Shown piece by piece: positions 1,089 through 32,344 of a DNA stretch of 32,461 nucleotides. The notes under the pieces are model-generated. The model did not search any database. It worked only from the letters and a program-made list of their open reading frames with translations, and was not told where the DNA came from. Both the position numbers and the translations under genes were made by a program. Each line of letters begins with the position of its first letter. Position 1 is the first letter of the stretch. Where the stretch lies: contig JACPTX010000059.1 in NCBI GenBank assembly GCA_016192545.1, positions 1 to 32,461 of the forward strand. The letters are read 5' to 3'. The DNA comes from Candidatus Omnitrophota bacterium. GTDB taxonomy: Bacteria; Omnitrophota; Gorgyraeia; Aquiviventales; Aquiviventaceae.

Positions 1089-1204
1089 TCATCTGGCGGG
1101 GCCTGCCGCTGCGCGACCCCACCGTCCGTCCTCGTCCGCCACAGATCGCGGCGGACCTGCGGGCGGGCGGCGGGGGCCCCCGCTCCGCGTCACCCGCCAG
1201 ATGA
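1089..1204. repeat. Palindromic element E1 between proA and nadD
   Basis: Perfect 12-bp inverted arms TCATCTGGCGGG (1089-1100) / CCCGCCAGATGA (1193-1204). Internal hairpins GTCCGCC/GGCGGAC (1134-1140/1150-1156) and GCGGGGGCCCCCGC (1170-1183). The right arm contains the nadD ATG. Confidence 0.85.
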
Positions 1205-1773
1205 GGCGACTTGGCATCTTGGGGGGCACGTTTAATCCGATTCACCTCGGGCACCTGCTTCTGGCGGAATGCGCCCGCGAGCAGTATGCGCTCGACCAGG
1301 TCTGGTTCATGCCCACCGCCGTCCCGCCGCACAAATCCGCCCGCAGGCTCCTCGACGCGCGGCACCGCCTCGCCATGGTCCGCCTGGCGGTCCGGGGGCA
1401 TCCGGCCTTTCGCGCCTCGGATTTGGAGTTGCAGCTCGGCGGCGTCTCGTATACCATCAGAACGATTCACGCGCTTCGGCGGCGGGTTCCGGGGGCGCGG
1501 CTGTTCTATCTGGTGGGCGCGGATCTGCTGGCGGTGGAGTGGCATCGGATGGACGCCTTGCGGCGGCTCTGCACCTTTGCGGCGGCGGGCCGTCCGGGAC
1601 ACGCGATGCGCCGTGTCGCCGGGATGCGGCGGATCGCGATGCCGCAGGTGGACGTGTCCTCCTCGATGATCCGCGGGCGGATCCGCCGGGGACAGTCCAT
1701 CCGGTACCTGGTGCCTGACGCCGTGGCCCGGTATATCGCCCGTCACCGCCTCTACCAAGGAGCCGGCCGATGA
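1201..1773 (+). CDS. nadD: Nicotinate-nucleotide adenylyltransferase
   Basis: MRRLGILGGTFNPIHLGHLLLAECAREQYALDQVWFMPTAVPPHK; nucleotidyltransferase GGTFNPIHxGH motif; SSSMIRGRIRRG near the C-terminus. Confidence 0.95.
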   Translation: MRRLGILGGTFNPIHLGHLLLAECAREQYALDQVWFMPTAVPPHKSARRLLDARHRLAMVRLAVRGHPAFRASDLELQLGGVSYTIRTIHALRRRVPGARLFYLVGADLLAVEWHRMDALRRLCTFAAAGRPGHAMRRVAGMRRIAMPQVDVSSSMIRGRIRRGQSIRYLVPDAVARYIARHRLYQGAGR

Positions 1774-1878
1774 TCCCACGCCCTGCTGGGTTTCGCCGTC
1801 CTACAGTCCAACCATCGCCGAAGGCGAAACGTCCCGCCATGACGGGACGGCCTTCGGCCTACCAGCAGGGCGTGGGAT
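1773..1878. repeat. Multi-branched palindromic element E2 at nadD stop / corA start
   Basis: Perfect 17-bp arms ATCCCACGCCCTGCTGG (1773-1789) / CCAGCAGGGCGTGGGAT (1862-1878). Internal stems GTTTCGCC/GGCGAAAC, CGTCCCG/CGGGACG and GGCC-ttc-GGCC. Flanked by direct ATGA copies at 1770-1773 and 1877-1880. Confidence 0.9.
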
Positions 1879-2842
1879 GATTCGGTCCTACCGCTATCAC
1901 CCGACCGGAGAGCTGGAGTGGAACATCCCTGCGGAGCGCTTCCGGGAGGCCCTGGCGGATCCCCAGAGCCTCCTGTGGGTGGACATCGAGGATCCGGAAG
2001 ACGCCGAGATCGAGCTCCTGCTGGAGGTCTTCGATCTGCATCCGCTGACGGTCGAAGACTGCATCATGCCCAACGTCCGCCCGAAGATCGAGGAGTTCGA
2101 CCGCTACCTCTTCGTCGTGCTGCAGGGCCTGAAGCGCAACGACGCCAAGCGCCTCACCCCGACCGAGGTCGATTTCTGCATCGGCCGGAACTTCCTCGTG
2201 ACGGTGCGCTCGGAACGGATGAAAGTCCTGGACGAAGAGTGCATCCGGGTCGAGAAGAAGTCCCCCGTCATCAAGCGGGGAGCGGACTTCCTCTTCTATT
2301 CGATCGCGGACTCGCTCATTGACAGCTATTTTCCGATCCTCGACGAGGTGGAGGCGAGGGTGGATGAGCTGGAGACCCGGCTGCTGGCGGATTCCACGCA
2401 GGCGACGGTGAGCGCGCTGCTGGACGTGTATGGCGAGCTCATGATCCTGCGCCGGACCCTGGCGCCGCACCGGGAGATCCTCAGCCGATTCAACCGCGGG
2501 GACCTGCCGTTCATCACGCCCGCCAACGCCATCTACTTCCGCGACATCTACGACCACCTCCTGCGGATGAGCGATCTGGTGGATGCCTGCCGCGAGGTCA
2601 CGACGATGTCGCTGGAGGCCTACGCGACCATCGTGTCCAACCGGCTCAACGAGATCATGAAGACGCTGACGGCCATCGCCACGCTGGCCCTGCCGCTGAT
2701 CGTCGTGACCGGGATCTACGGGATGAATTTCTCCGAGCATCCGGAGCTGGGGCCGCGCTGGATCTACCATGTCTTTTCGGCAGGGATGCTGCTGGCCCTG
2801 CCGGTGATGGCGTGGGCCTTCCGCAAAAACCGATGGTTGTAG
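1877..2842 (+). CDS. corA: CorA-family Mg2+/Co2+ transporter
   Basis: C-terminal TIATLALPLIVVTGIYGMNFSEHPELG with the CorA GMN motif; two C-terminal TM segments; N-terminal VDIEDPEDAEIELLLEVFDLHPLTVEDC. Confidence 0.9.
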   Translation: MIRSYRYHPTGELEWNIPAERFREALADPQSLLWVDIEDPEDAEIELLLEVFDLHPLTVEDCIMPNVRPKIEEFDRYLFVVLQGLKRNDAKRLTPTEVDFCIGRNFLVTVRSERMKVLDEECIRVEKKSPVIKRGADFLFYSIADSLIDSYFPILDEVEARVDELETRLLADSTQATVSALLDVYGELMILRRTLAPHREILSRFNRGDLPFITPANAIYFRDIYDHLLRMSDLVDACREVTTMSLEAYATIVSNRLNEIMKTLTAIATLALPLIVVTGIYGMNFSEHPELGPRWIYHVFSAGMLLALPVMAWAFRKNRWL

Positions 2843-4499: not shown

Positions 4500-6161
4500 A
4501 TGCAGCTGATCGATCAACTGAACACCGTTCTCCGGCAGGCGGTTGGCGCGTGCGAGCCGTCGGCACCGACGGACTCGCTGCGCTGGGACGTCCCCAAGGA
4601 TCCCTCCTTCGGGGATCTGTCCTGCCCGGTGGCGTTCAGGCTGGCCTCCGGCCTTCGGAAGGCGCCTCTCCAGGTTGCGGAGCAGCTGGTCGCGGCGCTG
4701 CAGGACGCCGTGCACGGCTCGCGCGCGAGCCGCTGGGTGGACCGCCTGGAAGCCAAAAGCGGGTTCGTGAATCTCTTCCTGTCTCAGCAGGCCCTGCGGC
4801 AGATCCTGGCGCACATCCTCCGCAGCCGCGGGCGCTACGGCACCAGCCGGCTGGGAGCCGGGCGGTCGGTGCTGGTCGAATTTGTCAGCGCCAATCCCAC
4901 TGGCCCCTTGAGCGTCGCGCACGGCCGGCAGGCCGCGGTCGGCGATGCGCTGGCGCGGGTGCTGCGCTCGCAGGGCTGGCGCGTGACCACGGAGTTCTAT
5001 CTCAATGACGTGGGCCGGCAGGTGGAGCTGCTGGGCGCGTCGCTGCGCGCCCGGTATCTCGAACAGCTGGGACAGCCCACGCCCATCCCGGAAGGCGGGT
5101 ATCAGGGGCCGTATCTCGTTGAGAGCGCTGGGAACCTGGTTCGAGCACAGCAGGACACGCTGCGAGACAGAGAATTGAAGTGGTTTATCAAGACGGCCAG
5201 AGAGGAGCAACTGGCCGTCATCAAGGACGACCTGAAGCATTTCGGACTGGTGTTTGACTCATGGGTCAGCCAAGAGGACGACCTCGAACGGCCCGGCAAA
5301 GTGGATGTGGTGCTGGAACAGCTCAAGGCCAGAGGCGTCCTGTATGACGCCGAGGGGGCCACGTGGTTCGCCTCCACCAAGTTCGGCGACGACAAGGACC
5401 GGGTGGTGCGCAAGCAGTCCGGCGAGCTGACCTACCTGGCGCCGGACATCGCCTACCACGAGCAGAAATTCCGGCGGGGCTACGACCGGCTCATCAACCT
5501 CTGGGGCCCGGACCATCACGGCTACATCGCGCGCCTCAAGGCGGCGGTGACCGCGCTCGGCCTGCCGGCGGACCGGCTCACCGTCAAAATCGTCCAGTTG
5601 GTCACCCTCTCGCGCCACGGCACGGTGGTGCCGATGTCCAAGCGCGAGGGCGAGTACGTGAAGTTCCGCGACGTGCTCGACGAAGCCGGCGTGGACGCGA
5701 CGAGGTTCTTCTACCTCATGCGCACGATGGATAGCCATCTCGATTTCGACCTGGACCTGGCCACCTCCCAGTCCAACGAGAACCCGGTCTACTACGTCCA
5801 GTACGCCCACGCCCGCATCTGGAGCATCCTGGGCTATGCCAGGCGGCAGCTGCCGTGGTTCACGCGGCTCGGGAGCGCGAACCTCGCGCTCCTCGGAGAG
5901 CCGGAGGAACGCCTCCTGCTGCGGCACCTGTTTCAGTTCCCGATGGTCGCCGCCGCGTGCGCCCAGGCGCTTGAGCCGCACGGTCTGACCGTCTATCTGC
6001 AGAAACTCGCCGAGCTCTTCCACGTCTTCTACACCAAGCACCGCGTCATCGGGGAGGACGTCGCGCGCTCCCGCGCCCGCCTGGAGCTGATCCGCGCGGC
6101 CCGCTGGGTGATCGAGAACGGGCTGGGATTATTGGGGGTCGCCGCGCCCAAGCGGATGTGA
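4500..6161 (+). CDS. argS: Arginyl-tRNA synthetase
   Basis: VLVEFVSANPTGPLSVAHGRQAAVGDALARVL (class I HxGH-type signature as VAHGR), LINLWGPDHHGYIARLKAAV, VVPMSKREGEYVKFRDVLDEAG. Confidence 0.95.
   Translation: MQLIDQLNTVLRQAVGACEPSAPTDSLRWDVPKDPSFGDLSCPVAFRLASGLRKAPLQVAEQLVAALQDAVHGSRASRWVDRLEAKSGFVNLFLSQQALRQILAHILRSRGRYGTSRLGAGRSVLVEFVSANPTGPLSVAHGRQAAVGDALARVLRSQGWRVTTEFYLNDVGRQVELLGASLRARYLEQLGQPTPIPEGGYQGPYLVESAGNLVRAQQDTLRDRELKWFIKTAREEQLAVIKDDLKHFGLVFDSWVSQEDDLERPGKVDVVLEQLKARGVLYDAEGATWFASTKFGDDKDRVVRKQSGELTYLAPDIAYHEQKFRRGYDRLINLWGPDHHGYIARLKAAVTALGLPADRLTVKIVQLVTLSRHGTVVPMSKREGEYVKFRDVLDEAGVDATRFFYLMRTMDSHLDFDLDLATSQSNENPVYYVQYAHARIWSILGYARRQLPWFTRLGSANLALLGEPEERLLLRHLFQFPMVAAACAQALEPHGLTVYLQKLAELFHVFYTKHRVIGEDVARSRARLELIRAARWVIENGLGLLGVAAPKRM
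4715..4732. repeat. 18-bp perfect palindrome inside argS
   Basis: CGGCTCGCGCGCGAGCCG; encodes part of HGSRASR near the N-terminal domain. Confidence 0.6.
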
Positions 6162-8074
6162 GTGTCATGTTGGAGTACCGCCGGTTCTATGTCGGGGAAC
6201 GACTCAACCTGGAGCAGGTGCTGGACCAACTGATGCGCTTCGGCTATCAGCGCGTGCCGCAGGTGGCGGATCCGGGGGACCTCGCCGTGCGCGGCGGGAT
6301 CCTGGATATCTTTCCCGCCACGTTCGAATGCCCCCTGCGCCTGGAGCTGGCGGGCTCGCGCCTCGCGTCCATCCGGGGCTTCAACCCGGTGACCTTCGAG
6401 ACGCTCGACCGCCACTCCATGGTCGTCGTCCTCCCGCGCCAGCTGCGCATGCGCATGAGCGGGCGCGGGATCCTCGATCTCGAGACGCCCTTTGAGGGGG
6501 CCCTCGACCTCACGGAGGGCGATCTCGTCGTGCATCTCGAACACGGGATCGGGCGGTTCTGCGGGCGCACGACCCTGGCGACCAGCCAGGGGCAGACCGA
6601 TGCGCTGATCCTCGAGTACGCGGGCGGCGACCGGCTCTACGTGCCGATGGACCAGCTGCATCTGGTCCAGCGATACGTCGGGTTCGGCTCACGCCTGCCG
6701 GCCCTGCACACGTTGGGCGGCAGCGCCTGGGAACGGGCCAAGGCCAAGGCGTATCTCGGCGCCTGGACGTACGCGAACGAGCTCCTGAGCGTGCAGGCCA
6801 GGCGCCTGGCGCTTCCCGGCCACACGTTCTCCAAGGACCATGAATGGCAGCGGGATTTCGAGCGGGCCTTTCCGTATCGCGAGACCCCGGACCAACTCGC
6901 CGCCACCGAGCAGGTCAAGCAGGACATGGAGGACGCCCGTCCGATGGATCGCCTGCTCCTCGGGGACGTGGGCTACGGCAAGACCGAGGTCGCGCTGCGC
7001 GCCGCGTTCAAGACGGTGATGGACCAGAAGCAGGCGGCCGTGCTCGTGCCGACGACGATCCTGGCCTACCAGCATGCCCGGACCTTCACCGCGCGCCTGC
7101 AGGCCTTTCCGGTCCAGGTCGAGACGCTCTCCAGGTTTCAGACGCCCGCCGAGCAGCACCGCATCCTGGAGGCCCTGAGGGCCGGCGCGTGCGACATCGT
7201 GATCGGGACGCACCGGCTGCTGTCCGGCGACGTGCAGTTCAAGGATCTCGGGCTGCTGATCATCGACGAGGAGCAGCGCTTCGGCGTGCGGGAGAAGGAG
7301 CAGTTGAAGGCGTGGCGCACGCAGGTGGACGTCCTGGTGCTGTCGGCGACCCCGATCCCGCGGACGCTGTACCTGGCGCTGATGGGCTCCCGGGAGATGT
7401 CGCTGATCATGACCCCGCCGGAGAACCGGCATCCGGTGGAGACGGCGGTCGCCGAGGACGATGACGACTCGCTCCGGCGGTGGATCCGGAAGGAGCTGGC
7501 CCGGCAGGGGCAGGTGTACGTCGTGCACAACCGGGTGTATGACATTCACCAGCTGGCCGCGCGCATCCGGCGCCTGGTGCCGGAGGCGCGGGTGGGTGTG
7601 GGGCACGGACAGCTGCCCGAGGAGGCGCTGGAGCGCACCGTGCTGGAGTTCATCGAGGGCCGGCTCGACGTGCTGGTGACGACGACGATCATCGAATCCG
7701 GCATCGACATCCCCAACGCCAACACCCTCATCGTCAACCGCGCCGACCAGTTCGGATTGGCGGACCTGTATCAGCTCCGGGGCCGGGTGGGCCGGTTCAC
7801 CCGCAAGGCCTACGCCTACCTCTTGGTCCCGCGGGGCGGCGGGCTGTCGCAGGAGGCCCGCGAGCGCCTGCGCGCCATCATGCAGCACACCGAGCTGGGC
7901 GCGGGCTTCAAAATCGCCATGGAAGATTTGAAACTCCGCGGGGCCGGCAACCTGCTCGGCATCGAGCAGCACGGCCACATCACGGCGGTCGGCTTCGATC
8001 TCTACTGCCGGCTGCTGCGCGAAGCCATCACCCACATCAAGCACGAGCAACCGGTTCCGGTCGGTGCCGCATGA
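6158..8074 (+). CDS. mfd: Mfd-like transcription-repair coupling factor, shortened at both ends
   Basis: AVRGGILDIFPATFECPLRLEL (UvrB-like D1b segment), GDLVVHLEHGIGRFCG (RNAP-interaction domain), LLGDVGYGKTEVALRAAF, LLIIDEEQRFGVREKEQLKAWRTQVDVLVLSATPIPRTL, TTTIIESGIDIPNANTLIVNRADQFGLADLYQLRGRVGR. Only 638 aa; argS ends directly upstream (GTGA overlap). Confidence 0.9.
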   Translation: MSVMLEYRRFYVGERLNLEQVLDQLMRFGYQRVPQVADPGDLAVRGGILDIFPATFECPLRLELAGSRLASIRGFNPVTFETLDRHSMVVVLPRQLRMRMSGRGILDLETPFEGALDLTEGDLVVHLEHGIGRFCGRTTLATSQGQTDALILEYAGGDRLYVPMDQLHLVQRYVGFGSRLPALHTLGGSAWERAKAKAYLGAWTYANELLSVQARRLALPGHTFSKDHEWQRDFERAFPYRETPDQLAATEQVKQDMEDARPMDRLLLGDVGYGKTEVALRAAFKTVMDQKQAAVLVPTTILAYQHARTFTARLQAFPVQVETLSRFQTPAEQHRILEALRAGACDIVIGTHRLLSGDVQFKDLGLLIIDEEQRFGVREKEQLKAWRTQVDVLVLSATPIPRTLYLALMGSREMSLIMTPPENRHPVETAVAEDDDDSLRRWIRKELARQGQVYVVHNRVYDIHQLAARIRRLVPEARVGVGHGQLPEEALERTVLEFIEGRLDVLVTTTIIESGIDIPNANTLIVNRADQFGLADLYQLRGRVGRFTRKAYAYLLVPRGGGLSQEARERLRAIMQHTELGAGFKIAMEDLKLRGAGNLLGIEQHGHITAVGFDLYCRLLREAITHIKHEQPVPVGAA

Positions 8075-8140
8075 TCCCGCACCTTTCTGGATTCACGTTT
8101 CTAACGTCCAGGATCGTGAATGGTCTGAAAGGTGCGGGAT
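8074..8140. repeat. Palindromic element E3 at mfd stop / surA-like start
   Basis: Perfect 14-bp arms ATCCCGCACCTTTC (8074-8087) / GAAAGGTGCGGGAT (8127-8140); inner ATTCACG/CGTGAAT stem. Flanked by direct ATGA copies at 8071-8074 and 8139-8142. Confidence 0.9.
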
Positions 8141-9098
8141 GACCCGCTCCCGATTGTTGGCGTTGCTCGTGATGCTCGTCACTGGTCACTGGTCACTCGT
8201 CACTGCAGTCCATGCGGCTACCAACCGCATCGTGGCGATTGTGAACGACGACGTGATCACGGAGGGCGACGTCATCGCGCACATGGCCGCGCTCTTTCAG
8301 CGGGGAGACCTGCCCAGGCCGACCGACGAGGAAGCGCAAGGCATGCGGCGGGCGGTGCTTCAGCGGCTCATTGAGGAGCGTCTCATCGTGCAGGAGGGCA
8401 AACGCCTGGGCCTCACCGTGGACCCTGCCGAGGTGACGAAGCGGCTGCAGGACATCCGCGCGCAATTGGGGAGCAAAGAGGCCTACGAGCAGATGCTGCA
8501 GGAAGCGCAGCTGGGCGAGGAGCAATTGAAGATCAAGCTGCGCGAGCAGCTCATGGCGCAGAACACGATTGACCGCCAGGTGCGCTCCAAGATTCTGATC
8601 AGCCCTGCGGAGCTGGCGAGCGCCGCCGAGACCCCCGCCTTGCCCGGCAATCCCGGCGAGGAGGTCTTGGCGTCTCACCTCCTGATCCGCCTCGGGGATG
8701 AGCGCTCCGGCGAGGAGGCGGAGACCCTCATTCGCCAGCTCCGCGAGCGCCTCCAGCGGGGCGCGGACTTCAGCGAGCTGGCCAAGCAGTATTCCGAAGG
8801 GCCCCATGCCGAGGAGGGCGGGTCGTTGGGCTGGGTGCGCCCCGGCGAACTGCGGCCGGAGCTCGAGGCCGCGCTCTTTAGCCTGCAAGCCGGGGAGGTC
8901 TCCGAGCCGATCCGCTCGCCGCTCGGCGTGCATCTGCTCAAGGTGTTCGACCGGCGCAGCCTCTCCGAACGGGAGCTCGCCGAGGGGCGCGACCGCCTGG
9001 AGCGCCGGCTCTATCAGGAGAAGTTCGTGGCGGCGCTCGAGCGGTGGCTGGCGGACCTGAGACAACGGGCGTATATTCAGGTGATGGATGAGGAATGA
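8139..9098 (+). CDS. surA: SurA/PpiC-type periplasmic peptidyl-prolyl isomerase
   Basis: Signal peptide MTRSRLLALLVMLVTGHWSLVTAVHA; ATNRIVAIVNDDVITEGDV; rotamase SHLLIRLGDERSGEEAETLIRQLRERLQRGADFSELAKQYSEGPHAEEGGSLGWVRPGEL. Located directly before pdxA-rsmA, the classic surA-pdxA-rsmA order. Confidence 0.88.
   Translation: MTRSRLLALLVMLVTGHWSLVTAVHAATNRIVAIVNDDVITEGDVIAHMAALFQRGDLPRPTDEEAQGMRRAVLQRLIEERLIVQEGKRLGLTVDPAEVTKRLQDIRAQLGSKEAYEQMLQEAQLGEEQLKIKLREQLMAQNTIDRQVRSKILISPAELASAAETPALPGNPGEEVLASHLLIRLGDERSGEEAETLIRQLRERLQRGADFSELAKQYSEGPHAEEGGSLGWVRPGELRPELEAALFSLQAGEVSEPIRSPLGVHLLKVFDRRSLSERELAEGRDRLERRLYQEKFVAALERWLADLRQRAYIQVMDEE
8178..8205 (+). repeat. Heptanucleotide tandem repeat (GTCACTS)x4 in the surA-like signal peptide
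   Basis: GTCACTG GTCACTG GTCACTC GTCACTG, read as VTGHWSLVT plus the next codon. Confidence 0.9.
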
Positions 9099-10084
9099 GC
9101 GCGCCCCGTCCGTCCCTGCTCATCACCGCCGGAGATCCGTGCGGGATCGGCCCCGAAGTGATGCTGAAAGCCCTCGCCTCGTCGCTGCCCTTCTGCCGTG
9201 TGACGGTGATTGGAGATCTGGCGGTCTTTGAGCGGACCGCCGTACGAGTGGGTCGGCGTCTGCCCCGAGGCAGCCACCTCGAATTCCTTGACCTGGCCCA
9301 TCGGCAGCGCTATACGCCGGGCAGGCCAAGCGCGGCTTCAGGGCGGGCTTCACTGGACTATCTGGAGGTGGCGGTTGGCCTGTTGCGCCGGGGTGAAGCG
9401 CAGGGGCTGGTCACCGCGCCGGTCACGAAATGGGCGGTGGAGCGCGCGCGCCGCGGATTCGAGGGGCATACCGAGTATCTCGCGCACGCCTTCGGGGTCG
9501 CCAACCCGGTGATGATGTTCGCCTCGCCGGCCCTGCGGGTCGTGCTGCTGACGCGCCACGTGGCGCTCCGACAGGTGCCGTCCCGCGTCACCCCGCGCCT
9601 GGTGCGCGACGCCATTCGGACGACGCTCGATGGCTTGCGGCGTGAGTTCGGGATCCGGCGTCCGCGCCTGGCGGTCTGCGGGCTGAATCCGCATGCCGGA
9701 GAGGCCGGATTGTTCGGGCGGGAAGAGCAGCGCGTCCTGCTTCCTGTGATGCGGGAGCTCTCACGCAGGGGGATCAGACTGGAAGGGCCGGTGTCCGCCG
9801 ACGGGTTCTTCGCCGATCCCTCCGGCTATGACGCCGTGCTGTGCTGGTATCACGACCAGGGGCTCATCCCGTTCAAGCTCTTGGCGAGAGACCGCGGCTG
9901 CCAGGTGACGCTCGGCCTGCCCATCGTCAGAACCTCGCCGGACCACGGCAGCGCCCTCGACATCGCCGGCCGCAACTGCGCGCACCCCGGCTCCATGCGC
10001 TACGCGATCCACCTGGCCTCGACCCTCGTCGCCAAACGGGGTCAGACCCCGATTGTTGAGCGCAGGGTTTCAGGAGGGGTCTGA
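9095..10084 (+). CDS. pdxA: 4-hydroxythreonine-4-phosphate dehydrogenase
   Basis: LLITAGDPCGIGPEVMLKAL, GFEGHTEYLAHAFGV, NPHAGEAGLFGREE, GPVSADGFFADPSGYDAVLCWYHDQGLIPFKLL, LGLPIVRTSPDHGSALDIAGRN. ATGA overlap with the upstream gene. Confidence 0.95.
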   Translation: MSAPRPSLLITAGDPCGIGPEVMLKALASSLPFCRVTVIGDLAVFERTAVRVGRRLPRGSHLEFLDLAHRQRYTPGRPSAASGRASLDYLEVAVGLLRRGEAQGLVTAPVTKWAVERARRGFEGHTEYLAHAFGVANPVMMFASPALRVVLLTRHVALRQVPSRVTPRLVRDAIRTTLDGLRREFGIRRPRLAVCGLNPHAGEAGLFGREEQRVLLPVMRELSRRGIRLEGPVSADGFFADPSGYDAVLCWYHDQGLIPFKLLARDRGCQVTLGLPIVRTSPDHGSALDIAGRNCAHPGSMRYAIHLASTLVAKRGQTPIVERRVSGGV

Positions 10085-10088
10085 CCCC
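10038..10088. repeat. REP-like inverted pair GGGGTCAGACCCC / GGGGTCTGACCCC at the pdxA 3' end
   Basis: 13-bp arms 10038-10050 and 10076-10088; the pdxA TGA (10082-10084) lies inside the right arm. Confidence 0.9.
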
Positions 10089-11259: not shown

Positions 11260-12840
11260 ATGAGCCGGCTGTGCGAGTTGACGATGCATGAGGCGCGGGC
11301 GCGCATCGAGCAGGGCGGGTGCGATCCCCGCGAGCTCCTGCGCGACGTGCTCGACCAGATCGAGCGGCTGAATCCGCTGCTCCACGCCTACATCGCGGTG
11401 GACCGCCGCCGCCTCGAGGCGGCGCTCGACGCGCGCCTCCGGCAGGGCCCGCGGGGCAGGCTCTTCGGGATTCCCGTGACGGTCAAAGACAATCTCTGCG
11501 TGCAGGACGAGGAAACCGCCTGCGGCTCGCGCATCCTGGCCGGCTTCCGTCCGCCGTACCACGCCACCGCGATTGACCGGCTCCTCCAGGAAGGGGCCGT
11601 CATCATCCCGCGGGCCAACATGGATGAGTTTGCGTTCGGCTCCTCGACGGAGACCTCGTATTTCGGCCCGACGAAAAATCCATGGGACCCGGCCCGCGTG
11701 CCCGGGGGCTCAAGCGGCGGCTCCGCGACCGCCGTGGCCGCGGATCTGGCGCTGGGCGCGCTGGGGACGGACACCGGCGGCTCGATCCGGCAGCCGGCGT
11801 CGTTCTGCGGCGTCGTGGGGCTGAAGCCGACGTATGGCCGCGTGTCGCGCTATGGCTTGATCGCCTTCGCCTCGTCGCTCGACCAGATCGGGCCGATCAC
11901 GAAGGACGTCACGGACTGCGCGCTGCTCTTGTCCGTCATCGCGGGGCACGACCCGAAGGATTCCACCTCCGCGCCCGTCGACGTGCCGGACTATGTCGGC
12001 CGGCTCTCTGCCCCGATCCGCGGCTTTCGGATCGGGGTGCCGAACCTTCCGAAGGAGGGGTTGGACGAGCAGGTCGGGCGGGCGATTGAAGAGGCAACGC
12101 AGGTCTTTCAACGGCTGGGCTGCTCGACCGTGCCGGTTGACCTGCCTCACATCGGCTCCTCCATCGCCACGTATTATGTGGTGGCCGTGGCTGAGGCCAG
12201 CTCCAACCTCGCCCGGTATGACGGCGTGCAGTACGGCTATCGCGCGACCGAGCCCGGGTACCCCCGCGGCTTCGTTTGGCGAAGCCAAACGTGCGGGGGT
12301 GGGCGACGGGAGTGCCGTGAGCCGGGAGGCGAACGGCCGCCCACCCACACGCTGTCGCTCCTCGACATGTACGAGCGCACGCGGGATGAGGGCTTCGGCG
12401 CGGAGGCGAAGCGGCGGATCATCCTGGGGACGTACGTCCTGTCGCGCGGCTACTACGACGCCTACTACCTGCAAGGGATGAAAGTCCGCACGCTGATCAA
12501 GCGGGATTTCGACGAGGCCTTCCAGCGCTGCGACGCGGTGGTGCTGCCGACCTCCCCCACGCCCGCGTTCCGGCTCGGCGAGAAACTGGACGACCCGCTC
12601 CAGATGTACCTGTCGGACATCTACACCATCTCCGCGAACCTCGCCGGCGTGCCGGCGATCTCCATCCCGTGCGGCTCTTCCCGCGAGGGGCTGCCGATCG
12701 GGATGCAGCTCGTGGCGGCGCCGTTCGGCGAGGAGGCGCTGCTGCGGGCGGCCTTCGCGTATGAGCAGGCGACCGAATGGCACCATCAAACTCCAGCAAT
12801 CAAGGGGTCAGACCCCGTCGGTCAAAGCCATGGTTCTTGA
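11260..12840 (+). CDS. gatA: Asp-tRNA(Asn)/Glu-tRNA(Gln) amidotransferase subunit A with a palindrome-derived insertion
   Basis: Amidase signature VPGGSSGGSATAVAADLALGALGTDTGGSIRQPASFCGVVGLKPTYGRVSRYGLIAFASSLDQIGPI; KRRIILGTYVLSRGYYDAYYLQ. Extra ~30 residues between YGYRAT and SLLDMYERTRDEGFG. Confidence 0.95.
   Translation: MSRLCELTMHEARARIEQGGCDPRELLRDVLDQIERLNPLLHAYIAVDRRRLEAALDARLRQGPRGRLFGIPVTVKDNLCVQDEETACGSRILAGFRPPYHATAIDRLLQEGAVIIPRANMDEFAFGSSTETSYFGPTKNPWDPARVPGGSSGGSATAVAADLALGALGTDTGGSIRQPASFCGVVGLKPTYGRVSRYGLIAFASSLDQIGPITKDVTDCALLLSVIAGHDPKDSTSAPVDVPDYVGRLSAPIRGFRIGVPNLPKEGLDEQVGRAIEEATQVFQRLGCSTVPVDLPHIGSSIATYYVVAVAEASSNLARYDGVQYGYRATEPGYPRGFVWRSQTCGGGRRECREPGGERPPTHTLSLLDMYERTRDEGFGAEAKRRIILGTYVLSRGYYDAYYLQGMKVRTLIKRDFDEAFQRCDAVVLPTSPTPAFRLGEKLDDPLQMYLSDIYTISANLAGVPAISIPCGSSREGLPIGMQLVAAPFGEEALLRAAFAYEQATEWHHQTPAIKGSDPVGQSHGS
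12260..12346. repeat. Double-hairpin palindromic insertion inside gatA
   Basis: Hairpin 1: ACCCCCGC (12260-12267)/GCGGGGGT (12293-12300) with inner CGTTTGGC/GCCAAACG. Hairpin 2: GGGTGGGCG (12297-12305)/CGCCCACCC (12338-12346). Confidence 0.85.
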
Positions 12841-12855
12841 GGGGTCTGACCCCTT
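12802..12855. repeat. REP-like inverted pair at the gatA/gatB junction
   Basis: Perfect 15-bp arms AAGGGGTCAGACCCC (12802-12816) / GGGGTCTGACCCCTT (12841-12855), same family as 10038-10088; gatA TGA at 12838-12840. Confidence 0.92.
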
Positions 12856-15626: not shown

Positions 15627-16636
15627 TGGTGCGGATTCTCGGCATTGAGACGTCGTGCGACGAAACCGCCATCGGCATCGTCGAGGAGGGCCGGACCATC
15701 CGGTCCAACGTCGTCGCCTCCAGCCAGCAGTTCCACCAGGCCTACGGCGGGGTCGTGCCGGAGATCGCCGCGCGGGTGCATGTCGAGGTGATTTGGCAGG
15801 TGCTCGAGGACGCCTTGCAGCAGGCGCAGTGCCGGCTGGCCGACGTGGATGCCATCGCGGCGACCCAGGGGCCCGGGCTGCCCGGCGCGCTCGTCATCGG
15901 CCTCGCATTCGCGAAGGGATTGGCGCTGTCCGTTGACCGTCCGCTGATCGGCATCGACCACCTCGCCGCCCATCTCTACGCCGGCGCGATGTCGGACCCG
16001 GATCTCGCCGAGCCGTTCGTCGGGCTGGTGGTGTCCGGCGGACACACGCTGCTGTGCGTGGTGCATCCGGACCAGCGGTTTGAGCCACTCGGCGAAACCA
16101 AGGACGATGCCGCGGGCGAGGCGTTCGATAAGGTCGCGAAGCTCCTCGGCCTGGGCTACCCCGGCGGGCCGGTCATTGACCGATTGTCGGAAGAAGGCAA
16201 CCCCGCGGCGATCGCCTTCCCGCGCCACACCGCGAAGGACGGCTACGATTTCAGCTTCAGCGGCTTGAAAACCGCCGTGTATCAGCACGTGCGCAAACAG
16301 CCCCAGCCGCTGGAGCGCCCGCAGATCGCGGACATCGCCGCCAGCTTCCAGGAGGCCGTCGTCGAGATGCTCCTGGCCAAGACGCTGCGTGCCTGCCAGC
16401 GGACCGGCTGCAAGCAGCTCGTCATCGGCGGGGGGGTGGCGGCGAACCGCCGCCTGCGGCAGCGCCTCACCGAGGCCGGCGCCGAGCGCAAGATCCGCGT
16501 GGTCTGTCCGCCCATCGAGCTGTGCGCGGACAACGGGGCCATGGTCGCGGGCCTGGCGTATGAGCAGCTGCGCCGTGGCCGCGTCTCGCCGCTGTCGTTG
16601 TCGCCTGACGCGAACCTGTGCCTGTCGGGGGTCTGA
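15626..16636 (+). CDS. tsaD: tRNA N6-adenosine threonylcarbamoyltransferase
   Basis: MVRILGIETSCDETAIGIVEEG, GGVVPEIAARVHVEVI, ATQGPGLPGALVIGLAFAKGLAL, GIDHLAAHLYA, VSGGHTLL. Confidence 0.96.
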   Translation: MVRILGIETSCDETAIGIVEEGRTIRSNVVASSQQFHQAYGGVVPEIAARVHVEVIWQVLEDALQQAQCRLADVDAIAATQGPGLPGALVIGLAFAKGLALSVDRPLIGIDHLAAHLYAGAMSDPDLAEPFVGLVVSGGHTLLCVVHPDQRFEPLGETKDDAAGEAFDKVAKLLGLGYPGGPVIDRLSEEGNPAAIAFPRHTAKDGYDFSFSGLKTAVYQHVRKQPQPLERPQIADIAASFQEAVVEMLLAKTLRACQRTGCKQLVIGGGVAANRRLRQRLTEAGAERKIRVVCPPIELCADNGAMVAGLAYEQLRRGRVSPLSLSPDANLCLSGV

Positions 16637-18217: not shown

Positions 18218-18537
18218 GGGTCGTTCGGCGGTCGTGCCGACGGCCGGGGCGGCTGGTGCCGGCGACGGCCCGCCGTCTTCGCAGCCGGGCGATCCGGCTG
18301 CGTCCGGGGCAGGTGATCGACTGGCATTCCACCGGCAAGAGGGAAGAGCTGCTGATTATCCTCGCAGGCACCGTGCACGTGGAGCAGGAGGACCCCGACC
18401 CCGACTGCGGTCGGGGCGGTCGGGGGCGCGCGTTGCGCCTGACCGCGTCACACTGCGCCTTCATCCCCAGCCGGACGCGCCATCGCGTCCTCAACCGCAG
18501 TCGGCATCCGGCCCGCTACCTCTATATCGCCGCATGA
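18214..18537 (+). CDS. Small cupin-domain protein
   Basis: AIRLRPGQVIDWHSTGKREELLIILAGTVHVE...HCAFIPSRTRHRVLNRSRHPARYLYIAA; ATGA overlaps with both neighbours. Confidence 0.75.
   Translation: MRVVRRSCRRPGRLVPATARRLRSRAIRLRPGQVIDWHSTGKREELLIILAGTVHVEQEDPDPDCGRGGRGRALRLTASHCAFIPSRTRHRVLNRSRHPARYLYIAA
18392..18426. repeat. Palindromic insertion in the cupin gene
   Basis: CCCCGACC..CCCCGAC / GTCGGGG.c.GGTCGGGG (outer 18393-18400/18418-18425; inner 18399-18405/18410-18416) with a 1-nt bulge; encodes DPDPDCGRGGRGR. Confidence 0.75.
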
Positions 18538-21971: not shown

Positions 21972-22440
21972 GGGTTTTACCCTCGTGGAAATGCTGGTGG
22001 TGATGGCCGTCATCGGCCTGCTCGTGGCGGCCGGTGTCCCGGCGCTCACCGGCTATGCCACGCAGATGCGCCTCAAGGGCGCGACCCGCGAAGTCATCGG
22101 GCTGTTGTCGCTGGCGCGCAGCTCGGCGATCAGCTCCCGCACGCCCAGGACCGTCGTGGTGAACCCGGACACCCATGAGCTCGTCATCGAGGAAACCCTG
22201 ACGGAAGACGAGCCGCGCCGGGTCAGGCTCGCCTCGTCGCTGCAGGTGGACGTCCAATCGCAGGAGCAGACCGGCGGTCCCTTCCGCGTCGTGTTTCAGC
22301 CCGGCGGCGGGCTGGCCGGCCGCTCCGTGTCGCTGGTCCTCTCCAACGAGAGCCGCTCGCAGACCATCACGATCACCGCGGTCACCGGCGCCATCGCCGT
22401 GGCGGTGTCAGACGCGACCCTGACTGTCGACTCTCCCTGA
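21952..22440 (+). CDS. GspH-like minor pseudopilin
   Basis: MTSSTGKGFTLVEMLVVMAVIGLLVAAGVPALTGYATQMRLKGATREVIGLLSLARSSAISSRTPRTVVVNPDTHELVI; overlaps the gspG-like end by 20 nt. Confidence 0.85.
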   Translation: MTSSTGKGFTLVEMLVVMAVIGLLVAAGVPALTGYATQMRLKGATREVIGLLSLARSSAISSRTPRTVVVNPDTHELVIEETLTEDEPRRVRLASSLQVDVQSQEQTGGPFRVVFQPGGGLAGRSVSLVLSNESRSQTITITAVTGAIAVAVSDATLTVDSP

Positions 22441-22453
22441 CGTGTCTGACACC
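22404..22453. repeat. REP-like inverted pair GGTGTCAGAC / GTCTGACACC at the gspH-like 3' end
   Basis: 10-bp perfect arms 22404-22413 and 22444-22453 flanking the TGA at 22438-22440; related in sequence to the GGGGTCAGACCCC pairs. Confidence 0.75.
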
Positions 22454-23079: not shown

Positions 23080-23153
23080 CCTAGTCGCACGACACCGTCA
23101 CACTCCCGACAGAAATCCCCAACACGACAGTCCGTACGAGACTCTCTACGCGC

Positions 23154-25836
23154 ATGCGCACCGCCTTCCTCATCGACGGGACCGCGTTCTGTTACCGCGC
23201 CTTCTACGCGATCCGGGGGCTGGCGACGTCGGACGGCCGGCCGACCAACGCGGTCTACGGCTTTGCCGTCATGCTGAAGGCCCTGCGGGACAAGCACCAT
23301 CCCGAGTACCTGGCGGTGGCGCGCGCGGTTTGAGGACTACAAAATCCAGCGCAAGCCCATGCCGGATCCCCTCATCGCGCAGCTGCCGCTCATCAAGGAC
23401 CTGCTGGCGGCCTTGCGCGTGCCGACCTTCCAGGTGGAAGGCTACGAGGCCGAGGATCTCCTGGCGACGATCACCAAGCGGATCAGCGCCGACGTCGAGG
23501 TGTTCCTGGTGACCGGGGACAAGGACCTGCTGCAGCTCGTGGGCCCGCGGGTCAAGGTCTACAACCCGCATGCGGACAACGGCGCGATTCTGGACGGGGA
23601 AGCGGTGAAGGCCCGCTACGGCATCGGCCCTGAGGGCATGGTGGACTTTCTCGCCCTGAGCGGCGATGAGATCGACAACATCCCCGGCGTCCCCGGCATC
23701 GGCCCGAAGACCGCCTCCCAGCTCCTGCAGCAGTTCGGGACGGTGGAGCGCCTCTATGACCATCTGGAGGAGCTGCCCAGCGAGTCCCAGCGGACCGCGC
23801 TCGCGCGCTGCCGCGACCAGGTGAGCCTGGCGAGGGAGCTGGCGCAGATCACGGCGGAGGCGCCGATCGAGGTCGGGCTGGACGATTTGGCCGTGCAGGA
23901 ACCGGACTGGATGGCGCTGCGCCGGCTGTATCGCTCACTCGAATTCAAGAAGCTGCTGGCCGAGGTGGATGCCGCCATGCCGGCCGACCCGCAGCCCACG
24001 CTTCGCGCGCATGTGGTGGGAGACCAGCGGACCGCGGATGAGCTGGCGAAGCGGCTCGCGTCCCGTGAGCCTGCGGCGCTGGCCGCGTGGTCCACCCAGT
24101 GGTGTCCGAATGTGGCGGGTGACGCCGAGGGGAGGCCTCCTGCCGCCGGCCGCAGTCCCGTTGAGGGACGAGGACGGCAGGCGGAGTCCCGAGGCGGCAG
24201 GACCCGCCAAATGCTGGTGGCGCTGGCCTGGACCGCTGAGGAGGCGTGGATCGTGCCGTTTGACGCGACCCCGCCGAGCTGGTTGAAGTCGTTGAGGGAC
24301 TGGCTCGCCTCGGCGCAGCATCCGAAAGTGGGCCATGATGTGAAACGCCTCTCCCGCCTCCTGCGCGCGGGAGGGTGTGAAGTGGACGGCGTGGCCGGCG
24401 ACACGATGATCGCCGCGTACCTGCTCAATCCGTCGCTCGCGGAGCCGAGTCTCTCAGACTTGGCGGAGGAGCGGTTGGGGCGCCGGCTTGCCCCGTTAGA
24501 GCAGTCATCCTCTCTAACGGGGCTCGCGGACCATGCCTGCGCGATCCTGCAGGTGCACGAGGGGCTGGTCCGCGACCTGCGCGCCGCCGCGCTCGAGGCG
24601 CTCTACCGGGAACTCGAGCTGCCGCTGGTGCAGGTGCTGGCCGAGATGGAAACAACCGGGATCGCGGTGGACCGCGGCCAATTGGCCTCATTGCGAGCCC
24701 AGATGGACGTCAAGCGCTCGCGGCTGAGCCGCGAGCTGCATGAGCTGGCCGGCTGCGAGTTCAACCTCAACTCGCCGAAACAGCTCGCCGAGGTGCTGTT
24801 CAGCCGGCTGAAGCTGCCGGTCGTCAAGCGGACCAAGACCGGCCCCTCGACGGACAGCGAGGTGCTGCAGAAGCTTTCCGACACGCACCCCCTGCCGAAG
24901 AAGCTCATCGAATACCGCGAGCTCGCCAAGCTGAGCTCGACGTACCTGGAGGCGCTGCCCGAGCTGATTGATCCGAAGACCGGGCGGCTTCACACCACGT
25001 TTCATCAGACCGGCACCGCCACCGGGCGGCTCTCCTCCAGCGAGCCGAACCTGCAGAACATCCCGATCAAAACCGAGCTGGGCCGGCAGGTCCGCCGGGC
25101 GTTCGTGCCGGGGGAGCATGGCTGGGTCCTGATCGCGGCGGACTACTCGCAGATCGAGTTGCGCATCCTGGCGCACCTGTCCGGCGATCCGGCGCTGGGG
25201 GAGGCGTTCCGGCAGGAGCACTACATCCATCGTTACACCGCCTCGCTGATCTACGGCGTCGAGGAGCGCGACGTGACGGCCGAGATGCGGGGCGCGATGA
25301 AGGCGATCAACTACGGCATCCTCTATGGCATGAGCCCCTTCGGCCTCGCGAAGGAGCTGGGGATTCCCCAGGAAGAGGCGGCCGCGTTCATCGAGGCGTA
25401 TTTCGCCCGCTACCCGAACGTCCGCGCCTTTCTCGACGGACAGATCGAGCAGGCGCGCCGCGACGGCTTCGTGCAGACCCTGCTCGGGCGCCGCCGCTAC
25501 ATCCCGGAAGTCACCAGCCCCGACCCCGTGACCCGGCAGTTCGGGGAGCGGATGGCGGTGAACGCCCCGATCCAGGGCAGCGCGGCGGATTTGATCAAGC
25601 AGGCGATGGTGCAGCTGCATCACTGGCTGCGCGCGCAGGGGCTGAAGAGCCGGATGATCCTGCAGGTGCACGATGAGCTGGTCTTCGAGGCGCCGCCGAA
25701 GGAACGCGAGGCGCTCGTCGGACAGGCGCGCCGGATCATGGAGCACGCCATCGAGCTGTCCGTGCCGCTGCGCGTCCTCGTGAAGACCGGCCCCAACTGG
25801 CTCGACATGAACCCTGCAGATGCGTTGCCCGCATGA
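23154..25836 (+). CDS. polA: DNA polymerase I with a reading-frame break near 23320
   Basis: Frame A 23154-23333: MRTAFLIDGTAFCYRAFYAIRGLATSDGRPTNAVYGFAVMLKALRDKHHPEYLAVA then stop. Frame B from ~23320: RFEDYKIQRKPMPDPLIAQLPLIKDLL...GDKDLLQLV...GIGPKTASQLL...LIAADYSQIELRILAHLSGD...INYGILYGMSPFGLAKELGI...LQVHDELVFEAP. Confidence 0.88.
24138..24202. repeat. Palindromic insertion in polA, homologous to E1 (reverse orientation)
   Basis: TCCTGCCGCC (24138-24147) / GGCGGCAGGA (24193-24202). Reverse complement of 24166-24208 aligns ungapped to 1095-1137 with 35/43 identities by eye. Confidence 0.8.
24490..24523. repeat. Palindromic insertion in polA (second site)
   Basis: Perfect 12-bp arms GCCCCGTTAGAG (24490-24501) / CTCTAACGGGGC (24512-24523), 10-nt loop. 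Confidence 0.88.
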
Positions 25837-26154: not shown

Positions 26155-26202
26155 CCTGCCTGCCGCGCCGCCCAGGAGGAAAGCGGGCGCCGCGCAGGCA
26201 GG
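26155..26202. repeat. Palindromic insertion in coaE
   Basis: CCTGCCTGC (26155-26163) / GCAGGCAGG (26194-26202) with imperfect inner pairing; encodes [16 protein letters not shown]. Confidence 0.75.
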
Positions 26203-30042: not shown

Positions 30043-31029
30043 ATGATCGGACGGGGAACTCTGACGGAGACGAGGGGGATGCTCGGGGAGGTTGAGACGC
30101 AGCTGAGGGGGGCGGGGGTGGGGAGCGCGAGGGCGGAGGCGGAGTGGCTGGTGGCGGATACGCTGGGGGTGAGCCGAACCGACTTATACCTCTGGGACGG
30201 ACCCATCTCGTCTGCGCAGGCCGCGGAGCTTGAGGAGCGGATGGCCCGTCGCCTGTCAGGCGAGCCGCTGCAGTACGTGTTGGGATCGGTCGAGTTTTTG
30301 GGTCATCGTCTGGCGGTCAATCCGTCGGTGCTGATCCCGCGGCCGGAAACCGAAGCGCTTGCGGCGCAGGCGATTGTCACCCTCCAGGCGCTGGCTTCAG
30401 CGGGCAGGCCCCGTGAGATAGCGGCTTCACCTATCTCACGGGGCAGGGAACCGGTCCTGGTGCTGGACGTGGGGACCGGCAGCGGGTGCCTCGCCATCAG
30501 CTTGGCGCATGCGGTGGGGGCTTGCGCGATCACGGCGCTTGAGCTATCATGGAAGACCCTCCAGACCGCCAGGACGAACGTCCTCGCTCATCATCTGGAC
30601 GACCGCATTCATCTGATTCAATCGGACTGGACCAGCGGGGTGGGGGGCTTGTTTTCTCTCATCGTCTCGAATCCGCCCTACGTCCCGAGCGGCGAATTGG
30701 CGGGATTGCCGGACAATGTGCGCCGGGAACCGCGGGAAAGTCTTGACGGAGGATCGGACGGGATGCGGTTTCACCGGCGGTTGCTGATGGACGCCGAGCG
30801 GTTGCTCGCGCCGGGCGGCTCGCTGATGATGGAATGCGCGGAGTCCCAGGCCGAGGCGCTGCGCGCGTCTGCGGAGGGACTCTCGTGGGCGGCGGAGGCA
30901 TCGGTGGGAAACGACCTCGCCGGCCGTCCGAGAATCGTCAGTGTCCGGCGTCGTGATTCCTTGACCCCGCATAGAACGCATTCGACTTCAACGGGTGTGC
31001 GGGATGTCGCCCCGCGCCGCGGAGCATGA
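30043..31029 (+). CDS. prmC: Release factor glutamine methyltransferase
   Basis: GEPLQYVLGSVEFLGHRLAVNPSVLIPRPETEAL, VLDVGTGSGCLAISLAHA, LIVSNPPYVPSGEL (NPPY). Start uncertain (30043 or 30079). Confidence 0.92.
   Translation: MIGRGTLTETRGMLGEVETQLRGAGVGSARAEAEWLVADTLGVSRTDLYLWDGPISSAQAAELEERMARRLSGEPLQYVLGSVEFLGHRLAVNPSVLIPRPETEALAAQAIVTLQALASAGRPREIAASPISRGREPVLVLDVGTGSGCLAISLAHAVGACAITALELSWKTLQTARTNVLAHHLDDRIHLIQSDWTSGVGGLFSLIVSNPPYVPSGELAGLPDNVRREPRESLDGGSDGMRFHRRLLMDAERLLAPGGSLMMECAESQAEALRASAEGLSWAAEASVGNDLAGRPRIVSVRRRDSLTPHRTHSTSTGVRDVAPRRGA
30408..30444. repeat. Palindromic insertion in prmC
   Basis: Perfect 14-bp arms GCCCCGTGAGATAG (30408-30421) / CTATCTCACGGGGC (30431-30444), 9-nt loop. 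Confidence 0.92.
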
Positions 31030-31069
31030 GACGCCATCGTTCCTTGGTAATGCGGGGCTCCATAATCTA

Positions 31070-32344
31070 ATGGACACGCTCGTCGTCGAGCGCAGCGACC
31101 CGCTGACAGGCAGCATCGGCGTCAGCGGCGCGAAGAACGCGGCCCTGCCGATCATGGCCGCCTGCCTCCTGACGGAGGAGGAGTCGGTCATCGAGGGCGC
31201 GCCCCGCGTGACCGACGTGCTGACGATGGCCGAGATCCTCCGGACGCTCGGCGCCGAGGTGTCGTGGCCCCGACCGCCATCGGGGCTCGTCATCCGGCCG
31301 GATGACTACAGCGGCTGGACCGCGCCGTACGAGCTGGTGCGCCTGATGCGCGCCTCGGTCTGCGTGCTGGGGCCGCTGCTGGCCAAGCACGGGCGCGCCC
31401 GCGTGTCGCTGCCGGGCGGCTGCGTCATCGGCCCGCGCCCGATTGATTTGCACCTCAAAGGGCTGCAGGCGCTGGGCGCGGCCATCGCCATCGAGCACGG
31501 CGACATCCTCGCGCAGGCGGAGCGCCTGACCGGCGCCACGATCCATCTCGCCGGGCCGTCCGGCTCCTCGGTCCTGGCGACGGACAACGTCATGATGGCC
31601 GCGACCCTGGCGGACGGTATCACGGTGATCGAGTCGGCCGCCTGCGAGCCGGAAGTCGTGGACCTGGCCAATTGCCTGATCGCGATGGGCGCGCGGATCT
31701 CCGGGCACGGCACCCCGCGCATTCAGATCGAGGGGGTCGCGCGGCTGCGCGGGGCGCGCTGGCGCGTGATCCCGGACCGCATCGAGACCGGCACGCTGAT
31801 GATCGCCGCGGCGATGACCGGCGGGGACGTCCGGATTGACGGGGCGGTGCCGGAGCATCTGGGGGCGCTGATCGACGCGCTGCGGCAGGCCCGCGCGACG
31901 GTCGAGCTGCTGCCGGGCGCGCTGCGCGTGGCCGCGAACGGATGCCTGAAGGGCGTGGAAATCACGACGCTGCCGTTTCCGGGATTCCCGACGGACCTGC
32001 AGGCGCAGATGATGGCGCTGATGGCCGTCAGCGAGGGCGTGAGCCTCGTGGCCGAGAAGATTTATCCGGAGCGCTTTCAGCACGTGCCGGAGCTGCGCCG
32101 GATGGGGGCGTCCATCACGCGGGACGGGGCGCACGCGATCGTCAAGGGTGTGGCGCGCCTGAGCGGCGCGCCGGTCAAGGCCTCGGACCTGCGGGCCTCG
32201 GCCGCGCTCCTGCTGGCCGGCTTGGTGGCGGACAACCATACCGTGCTCGAAGGCCTCGAGCACCTGGACCGAGGCTATGAACGTCTGGAAGAGAAGCTGT
32301 CGATGCTGGGTGCGCGCATCCATCGGGAACGCGAAAGGAGTTAA
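31070..32344 (+). CDS. murA: UDP-N-acetylglucosamine 1-carboxyvinyltransferase
   Basis: GSIGVSGAKNAALPIMAACLLTEE, MRASVCVLGPLLAKHGRARVSLPGGCVIGPRPIDLHLKGLQALGA, FPTDLQAQMMALM, DLRASAALLLAGLVADN. Confidence 0.96.
   Translation: MDTLVVERSDPLTGSIGVSGAKNAALPIMAACLLTEEESVIEGAPRVTDVLTMAEILRTLGAEVSWPRPPSGLVIRPDDYSGWTAPYELVRLMRASVCVLGPLLAKHGRARVSLPGGCVIGPRPIDLHLKGLQALGAAIAIEHGDILAQAERLTGATIHLAGPSGSSVLATDNVMMAATLADGITVIESAACEPEVVDLANCLIAMGARISGHGTPRIQIEGVARLRGARWRVIPDRIETGTLMIAAAMTGGDVRIDGAVPEHLGALIDALRQARATVELLPGALRVAANGCLKGVEITTLPFPGFPTDLQAQMMALMAVSEGVSLVAEKIYPERFQHVPELRRMGASITRDGAHAIVKGVARLSGAPVKASDLRASAALLLAGLVADNHTVLEGLEHLDRGYERLEEKLSMLGARIHRERERS
31267..31286. repeat. Mini-palindrome GCCCCGA-ccgcca-TCGGGGC in murA
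   Basis: 7-bp arms matching the CCCCGAYNGCCRTCGGGG pattern; encodes PRPPSG (different phase). Confidence 0.55.

What the first reader, a model, noticed from the sequence alone, without database searches (positions are those of the whole stretch)
1089..31286. Several families of palindromic elements dispersed through a housekeeping gene cluster, including in-frame copies inside conserved proteins
Directly visible: perfect or near-perfect inverted repeats at 1089-1204, 1773-1878, 8074-8140, 10038-10088, 12260-12346, 12802-12855, 18392-18426, 22404-22453, 24138-24202, 24490-24523, 26155-26202 and 30408-30444, plus mini-palindromes in rsmA, two ATPase genes, murA and argS. The coding copies (gatA, polA x2, coaE, prmC, cupin) leave the frame open and lie where I expect a gap relative to known homologues. 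Rickettsia palindromic elements (RPEs) are the established precedent for selfish palindromes tolerated in ORFs. I infer that this genome carries an analogous and possibly undescribed set. No mobilising enzyme is in the window.
Basis: partly seen in the sequence, partly recalled or inferred. Interest (0 to 1): 0.88.

Follow-up and report, generated by a model that had tools for sequence, protein, structure and literature searches.

The report
Mobile hairpins between overlapping bacterial genes
Groundwater bacteria of the phylum Omnitrophota carry dozens of small folded DNA insertions exactly where one gene's stop codon overlaps the next gene's start codon, each rebuilding that overlap on both its sides with a tiny reading frame, so an insertion that should break the operon probably goes unnoticed by the ribosome.

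Summary
The strongest thing there was missed. Two of them (1773-1878, 8074-8140) belong to one Omnitrophota family, here 'family B' (31-157 bp, 24 intact copies in this genome, up to 64 pattern hits in same-family genomes). Family B has terminal arms ATCCC..GGGAT, usually 12-17 perfect pairs, enclosing hairpins. It sits at stop/start junctions: 121 of 166 copies follow ATGA and 160 precede ATGA. Orthologous empty sites show insertion with a TGA duplication: mfd-surA is a bare ATGA in 19 relatives, yajC-secD a bare TGATG in most. After insertion the upstream stop, a new downstream ATG and an ORF through the element (MIPPPx..QVVG*) form NTGA overlaps at both ends. Lengths obey phase: 120 of 145 are 1 mod 3, with 11/96/84 stops in the three frames. 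In-gene copies are 2 mod 3 (in frame). The peptide itself is not conserved. Best reading: a MITE-like mobile element that preserves translational coupling by termination-reinitiation. No mobiliser was found. The other palindromes are REP-like (GGGGTCAGACCCC, 221 copies; a relative's Y1 transposase lies among the same palindromes) or smaller families, some in frame inside gatA, coaE and prmC.

The parts
1773..1878 (+). Family B element (106-bp type) between a nadD-like gene (1201-1773) and corA (1877-2842); 17-bp perfect terminal arms ATCCCACGCCCTGCTGG..CCAGCAGGGCGTGGGAT
   Evidence: 19-sequence structural alignment; other genera have plain overlaps or unrelated family B elements at this junction
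1770..1880 (+). Transit mini-ORF through the element (36 aa, MIPRPAGFRRPTVQPSPKAKRPAMTGRPSAYQQGVG*); its ATG overlaps the upstream stop (ATGA, 1770-1773), its TGA overlaps the corA start (ATGA, 1877-1880)
1771..1773 (+). Left copy of the duplicated TGA (stop codon of the nadD-like gene)
   Evidence: 3-bp duplication fixed at another junction
1878..1880 (+). Right copy of the duplicated TGA, overlapping the corA start codon ATG (1877-1879)
8074..8140 (+). Family B element (67-bp type, three copies read in this genome) between mfd (6158-8074) and surA (start 8139); 14-bp arms ATCCCGCACCTTTC..GAAAGGTGCGGGAT
   Evidence: bare ATGA overlap at this junction in 19 related genomes
8071..8142 (+). Transit mini-ORF through the 67-bp element (23 aa, MIPHLSGFTFLTSRIVNGLKGAG*)
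10038..10088 (.). Family A (REP-like) palindrome pair GGGGTCAGACCCC..GGGGTCTGACCCC at the 3' end of pdxA; the ORF's stop lies inside it
   Evidence: ORF 9095-10084
12802..12855 (.). Family A palindrome pair between gatA and gatB; the stop of the gatA ORF lies inside it
1089..1204 (.). Family H: about 105-bp dispersed structured repeat (1095-1198) just upstream of the nadD-like gene
   Evidence: 93-95% identical copies elsewhere in this genome
12261..12299 (.). Family G palindrome CCCCCGCGGCTTCGTTTGGC..GCGGGGG inside gatA, within a 33-aa in-frame insertion (residues 332-365)
   Evidence: insertion versus PDB GatA; identical 39 bp at the corA junction of another genus (L338)
22404..22453 (.). 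Family D palindrome GGTGTCAGAC..GTCTGACACC (50 bp) at the 3' end of a GspH-like ORF
   Evidence: 92% identical copy in L043 plus half-sites
24142..24208 (.). Family I: 67-bp dispersed repeat inside the polA ORF
   Evidence: 98.5% identical copy on contig C1 of this genome (L031)
24490..24523 (.). Family C palindrome GCCCCGTTAGA..TCTAACGGGGC in frame inside polA
   Evidence: 94% copy in L121; all three family C copies found in the 320-kb sample lie inside long open frames
30408..30444 (.). Family C palindrome GCCCCGTGAGA..TCTCACGGGGC in frame inside prmC, at an extra segment relative to HemK/PrmC structures
26155..26202 (.). Imperfect palindrome inside coaE, within an extra segment of about 18 residues relative to CoaE structures; no convincing dispersed copy in the sampled part of the genome

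Best explanation
Family B is a non-autonomous, MITE-like mobile element of Omnitrophota. It inserts after TGA, most often in the 4-nt stop/start overlap ATGA of two genes, and duplicates TGA (left end TGA|TCCC.., right end ..GGGA|TGA). The upstream gene keeps its stop. The element's last base A plus the duplicated TGA rebuilds an ATG for the downstream gene. A phase-locked ORF starts at the old overlapping start codon, runs through the folded element and ends in the TGA that overlaps the new ATG. Two -4 overlaps thus replace one, so a ribosome can terminate, reinitiate, cross and melt the structure, terminate and reinitiate on the downstream gene. Without that ORF a 70-160-nt hairpin gap would uncouple the pair. 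Shown by sequence: insertion with TGA duplication at orthologous empty sites, phase rule, stop avoidance, consensus fold. Inferred: actual translation, coupling, and an unknown transposase acting in trans.
For: Empty orthologous sites: bare ATGA at mfd-surA in 19 relatives; plain overlaps or unrelated elements at nadD-corA; TGATG at yajC-secD in most relatives, against gTGA-[element]-TGATG here. Flanks in a scan free of flank constraints: 121/166 ATGA left, 160/166 ATGA right. Of 17 pairs upstream of the same gene, 16 have interiors no more alike than random pairs. Length 1 mod 3 in 120/145; stops 11/96/84 in frames 0/1/2; 52/54 open against 28 after interior shuffling, maximum 40 of 300 shuffles; replicated in 66 further elements. 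In-gene copies in purL, ispD and antisense cases are 80, 83 or 89 bp, a net multiple of three. Terminal stem plus three hairpins with two-sided changes in two subfamilies. Patchy distribution in two distant families. Literature: gaps of about 20-38 nt nearly abolish termination-reinitiation (PMC10666635).
Against: No mobiliser and no autonomous copy found. Elements within a subfamily are related, so the phase counts are not independent; by distinct lengths the bias is weaker (21 of 38 lengths are 1 mod 3). The phase rule holds equally at flanks other than ATGA, so it may be intrinsic to the element rather than selected at each junction. No expression data. The right arm has a Shine-Dalgarno-like AGG, so independent initiation on the downstream gene is not excluded.
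Confidence: 0.72

Rival explanations
1. Family B is a host cis-regulatory RNA: an intercistronic hairpin that hides the Shine-Dalgarno site and AUG of the downstream gene and couples its translation to the upstream gene, kept for regulation at particular genes.
For: The right arm carries an SD-like AGG and the AUG, paired with the left arm that begins in the upstream stop codon; the stem is kept with two-sided changes while loops diverge; hairpin-dependent coupling is known in E. coli operons (PMC6728339).
Against: Absent from most orthologous junctions; unrelated interiors where two genomes share a junction; copies inside genes and antisense; both orientations; terminal stem letters differ by genome, not by gene.
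Confidence: 0.12
2. Family B is a purely selfish insertion; junction location and phase are only survivorship and descent (insertions elsewhere are lost, and lengths are inherited from a few founders), and the ORF is not translated.
For: Peptide not conserved: equal divergence at the three codon positions; elements fall into subfamilies of shared length; phase rule also at non-ATGA flanks.
Against: Hypervariable interiors stay free of stops in one frame only, also in low-GC elements (5/38/22 stops), and 21 different lengths keep the same phase.
Confidence: 0.12
3. Family B is a REP element moved by a RAYT (Y1 HUH transposase), as proposed here for family A.
For: Y1_Tnp genes are common in relatives (47/59 genomes).
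Against: Genomes rich in family B (G015, G017, G023) have no Y1_Tnp match, although some are incomplete. Both orientations with the same TGA flanks and a 3-bp duplication point to transposition by terminal inverted repeats, not to strand-specific HUH insertion.
Confidence: 0.04

Closest known systems
Rickettsia palindromic elements (RPE)
   Same: Short palindromic repeats, many subfamilies, tolerated in reading frames, element encodes an ORF, no known mobiliser (review PMC10969869)
   Different: Family B lies mainly between genes at stop/start overlaps, duplicates TGA, regenerates the start codon, and its ORF avoids stops without a conserved peptide; different phylum. Sequence homology to RPEs was not tested.
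Prokaryotic MITEs (for example ERIC, Correia/NEMIS, RUP, BOX)
   Same: Short, terminal inverted repeats, target duplication, near genes, fold as RNA
   Different: Those known to me insert at TA or other motifs and are not confined to ATGA/TGATG junctions with a phase-locked ORF (partly from memory)
REP elements with RAYT transposases (PMC2817692, PMC3733652)
   Same: Family A here: short palindrome, over 200 copies, paired in mosaics, Y1 transposase among the same palindromes in a relative
   Different: No Y1_Tnp detectable in this genome; family B is larger, four-way folded and inserts into TGA in either orientation
ATGA/TGATG overlaps and termination-reinitiation coupling (PMC6728339, PMC10666635)
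   Same: The geometry the element inserts into and recreates
   Different: In the passages read, a property of gene pairs, not of a mobile element that propagates it

Membership tests
MITE (family B) | Short element with terminal inverted repeats and no transposase gene | tested here: met
   31-157 bp, arms usually 12-17 perfect pairs
MITE (family B) | Target-site duplication shown against an empty site | tested here: met
   TGA duplicated; empty sites at mfd-surA, nadD-corA and yajC-secD
MITE (family B) | Related autonomous transposon or cognate transposase | tested here: inconclusive
   None found between B ends in fetched loci; no Y1_Tnp in this genome, DDE_Tnp_1 in only 4 of 27 family genomes; assemblies are fragmented MAGs
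Rickettsia palindromic elements | In-frame insertion inside protein-coding genes | tested here: met
   A minority of family B copies (purL, ispD, antisense cases) and other families in gatA, coaE, prmC
Rickettsia palindromic elements | Encoded peptide is conserved among copies (as the review states) | tested here: not met
   Equal divergence at codon positions 1, 2 and 3 in family B interiors
Rickettsia palindromic elements | Sequence homology to an RPE family | not tested
   No RPE set was compared; family B pattern hits all came from Omnitrophota-type MAGs
REP/RAYT (family A) | Short palindrome in high copy number, often paired | tested here: met
   221 copies, mostly pairs
REP/RAYT (family A) | Cognate Y1 (HUH) transposase in the same genome | tested here: not met
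   No PF01797 in this 86%-complete genome; present among the same palindromes in relative G033
REP/RAYT (family A) | GTAG or CGTC tag at one end of the palindrome | not tested
   Not systematically scored; none is obvious in the copies listed

The most novel reading that the evidence does not exclude
A transposable element whose target site is the coupling signal of operons: it recognises TGA in stop/start overlaps and has evolved a translated 'transit' ORF, free of stops but free to vary in sequence, that regenerates a -4 overlap on both sides, making it transparent to termination-reinitiation and in effect inserting a mini-gene into operons genome-wide.
Probability: 0.6. Interest if true: 0.9.

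Novelty: new variant of a known kind. Interest (0 to 1): 0.82.

Why it matters
It shows how a mobile element can colonise the most compact part of a bacterial genome, the overlap between genes of one operon, without breaking either gene. If the phase rule reflects selection, it is a natural record that coupled translation across gene junctions matters in an uncultured phylum, and it makes termination-reinitiation testable with ready-made natural variants (1-, 2- and 0-mod-3 elements). It also implies many short unannotated ORFs in Omnitrophota operons.

Tried and rejected
Chance palindromes in GC-rich DNA: rejected by shuffles and by dispersed copies. 4-bp ATGA duplication: given up for 3-bp TGA because yajC-secD is TGATG in empty sites and gTGA|..|ATGATG when filled. 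IS200/605-type insertion after NTGA: disfavoured by an inverted copy, L155. IS5/IS1031-type mobiliser (TNA duplication, from memory): PF01609 is absent from most family B-rich genomes, so unsupported. Autonomous copy at G017 contig ends: the shared 83 bp is another repeat fused to truncated B arms, unresolved. Non-ATGA flanks as a control that should lack the phase rule: did not differ significantly. Conserved mini-protein: rejected, equal change at all codon positions. Viral or plasmid origin: no match for the two-arm pattern in viral contigs, nor for the 106-bp copy in plasmids. Rfam: no hit in the window. Literature: no paper holding GGGGTCAGACCCC and no relevant paper on Omnitrophota palindromes in the library held.

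Full report
What was checked. The window lies in a 1.35-Mb, 67-contig, 86%-complete assembly. It belongs to Candidatus Omnitrophota: a scan of 84,980 species genomes with a family B pattern returned 83 stretches, all from MAGs titled Omnitrophota or Omnitrophica except two from one titled Planctomycetales, and 17 of the 83 elements are identical to elements I had read from same-family genomes. I read about 320 kb of this genome in stretches, some more around pattern hits, and searched the rest by pattern. Perfect inverted repeats are in large excess (>=14-nt arms: 32 versus 0 in a shuffle) and fall into several dispersed families.

Family A (window 10038-10088, 12802-12855) is a palindrome, GGGGTCAGACCCC, usually paired as GGGGTCAGACCCC-N-GGGGTCTGACCCC, with 221 copies here and 0-16 in 58 relatives. 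In relative G033 the same palindromes lie on both sides of a 190-aa Y1 transposase ORF (motif MPNHYHL) whose 3' end reads into one of them. This is REP/RAYT-like, although this genome itself has no detectable Y1_Tnp. Families C, D, F, G, H and I are smaller. Family C copies sit inside long reading frames, and GatA, CoaE and PrmC carry extra in-frame segments at their palindromes relative to PDB homologues.

Family B (window 1773-1878, 8074-8140) is the main result. A 15-nt pattern for its right arm, MARGKBGBGGGATGA, hits 26 times here (two of these lack a left arm) and up to 64 times in same-family genomes, with almost no control hits. A scan of all fetched DNA for the inverted repeat with free flanks gives 166 distinct elements: left flank ATGA 121 (as ATGAT), GTGA 22, TTGA 5, CTGA 3; right flank ATGA 160; two elements are flanked by ATAA on both sides. 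The left flank is usually the upstream gene's stop codon: in the first set the TGA frame is the longest open frame upstream in 59 of 73 elements, and 68 of 79 elements run into an ORF of at least 60 codons starting at their own ATG.

Insertion polarity. At mfd-surA, 19 related genomes have a bare ATGA overlap, and this genome has the element. At nadD-corA, three genera have elements with unrelated interiors and others have plain overlaps. At yajC-secD most relatives have TGATG, while this genome reads gTGA-[TCCC..GGGA]-TGATG, and two other genera have different elements there. The last case fixes the duplication as TGA and makes the final A of the element part of its terminal repeat. Of 17 pairs of elements found upstream of the same gene, 16 have interiors no more alike than random pairs. 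One subfamily occurs in both orientations (L155 against L122/L193). This pattern fits repeated transposition-like insertion rather than an inherited regulatory leader.

Reading-frame phase. Because the last A plus TGA rebuilds ATGA, a frame that starts at the old overlapping start codon (NTG|ATC CC..) ends in the new TGA only if the element length is 1 mod 3. Of 145 elements, 120 are 1 mod 3, 18 are 2 mod 3 and 7 are 0 mod 3; 21 of 38 distinct lengths are 1 mod 3. In the 1-mod-3 set, stop codons number 11, 96 and 84 in frames 0, 1 and 2; in low-GC elements 5, 38 and 22. Shuffling interiors leaves 28 of 54 open on average against 52 observed. The rule held in 66 elements gathered afterwards with a pattern blind to length phase within its 78-108-nt gap. 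Copies inside genes (purL, ispD and antisense cases) are 80, 83 or 89 bp, a net multiple of three. Codon positions diverge equally, so stop-free passage, not a peptide, is what is kept.

Structure. Two subfamilies fold as a terminal stem enclosing three hairpins (four-way junction), with 8 and 9 pairs showing two-sided changes. The middle loop is hypervariable. Terminal stem letters are genome-specific (mostly CACGCCCTG here, CACCACCTG in G008), as expected from within-genome amplification. Minimal 31- and 35-bp copies retain only the terminal stem.

How it probably works. Measured termination-reinitiation falls to near zero at gaps of about 20-38 nt, and -4 overlaps are the commonest junction (PMC10666635). 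A 70-160-nt structured insertion should therefore uncouple the pair. The transit ORF restores a -4 overlap at each end, and a ribosome translating it would melt the stem that otherwise covers the Shine-Dalgarno-like AGG and the AUG. Insertion and phase are shown by sequence. Translation, coupling and trans-mobilisation are inferred.

Distribution. In 384 Omnitrophota genomes the left-arm pattern is found in this GTDB family (12 of 16 sampled) and in a second family of another class (most of the genomes sampled), with single hits elsewhere. The two lineages are distant, so the element has either been transferred or been lost widely.

Limits. The assemblies are MAGs and incomplete. Elements within a subfamily are related, so counts are not independent events. 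The phase rule also holds at GTGA/TTGA/CTGA flanks, so it may be intrinsic to the element. No mobiliser was found, and nothing here tests expression.

Noticed in passing
window about 23150-23400: polA appears frame-broken: its N-terminal exonuclease part is in another frame and stops at ..LAVARAV*, and the main ORF (23359-25836) starts at the residue matching Taq 89; a short deletion or an assembly error.
   Followed up: partly
L227-L230, L247, L249-L253 (G017 contig ends); L248 (G026): At least six contig ends of G017 share an 83-bp sequence (..GCTGCCTATTCTAGCAGCCGGGGGTGCGCAGCCTTTCATGGC) joined to family B elements whose left arm is truncated to ATCACCTG: another multi-copy element that seems to sit in family B arms.
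   Followed up: partly
L070:1022-1795 (G033): A 190-aa Y1 transposase ORF lies between GGGGTC(A/T)GACCCC palindromes and ends in one (C-terminus ..EGSDPYGTVV), linking family A to an HUH transposase.
   Followed up: partly
L036:54-97, L038:9252-9302 and 19369-19412, L039:2551-2605 and 15707-15758: Two more palindromic families in this genome, AAAAGTGACAGTCACTTTTT and GGGGACGTTTCTATTTTTC.
   Followed up: no
L199, L203, L205, L214, L215, L216 just after the mfd stop: The first codons of surA carry various short repeats or palindromes in several genera (for example AAAAAGTGCCTGGCACTTTTT in L203), suggesting a tolerant landing zone for unrelated elements.
   Followed up: no
L262, L299: Two family B elements are flanked by ATAA on both sides instead of ATGA, which supports a 3-bp TRA duplication.
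   Followed up: partly
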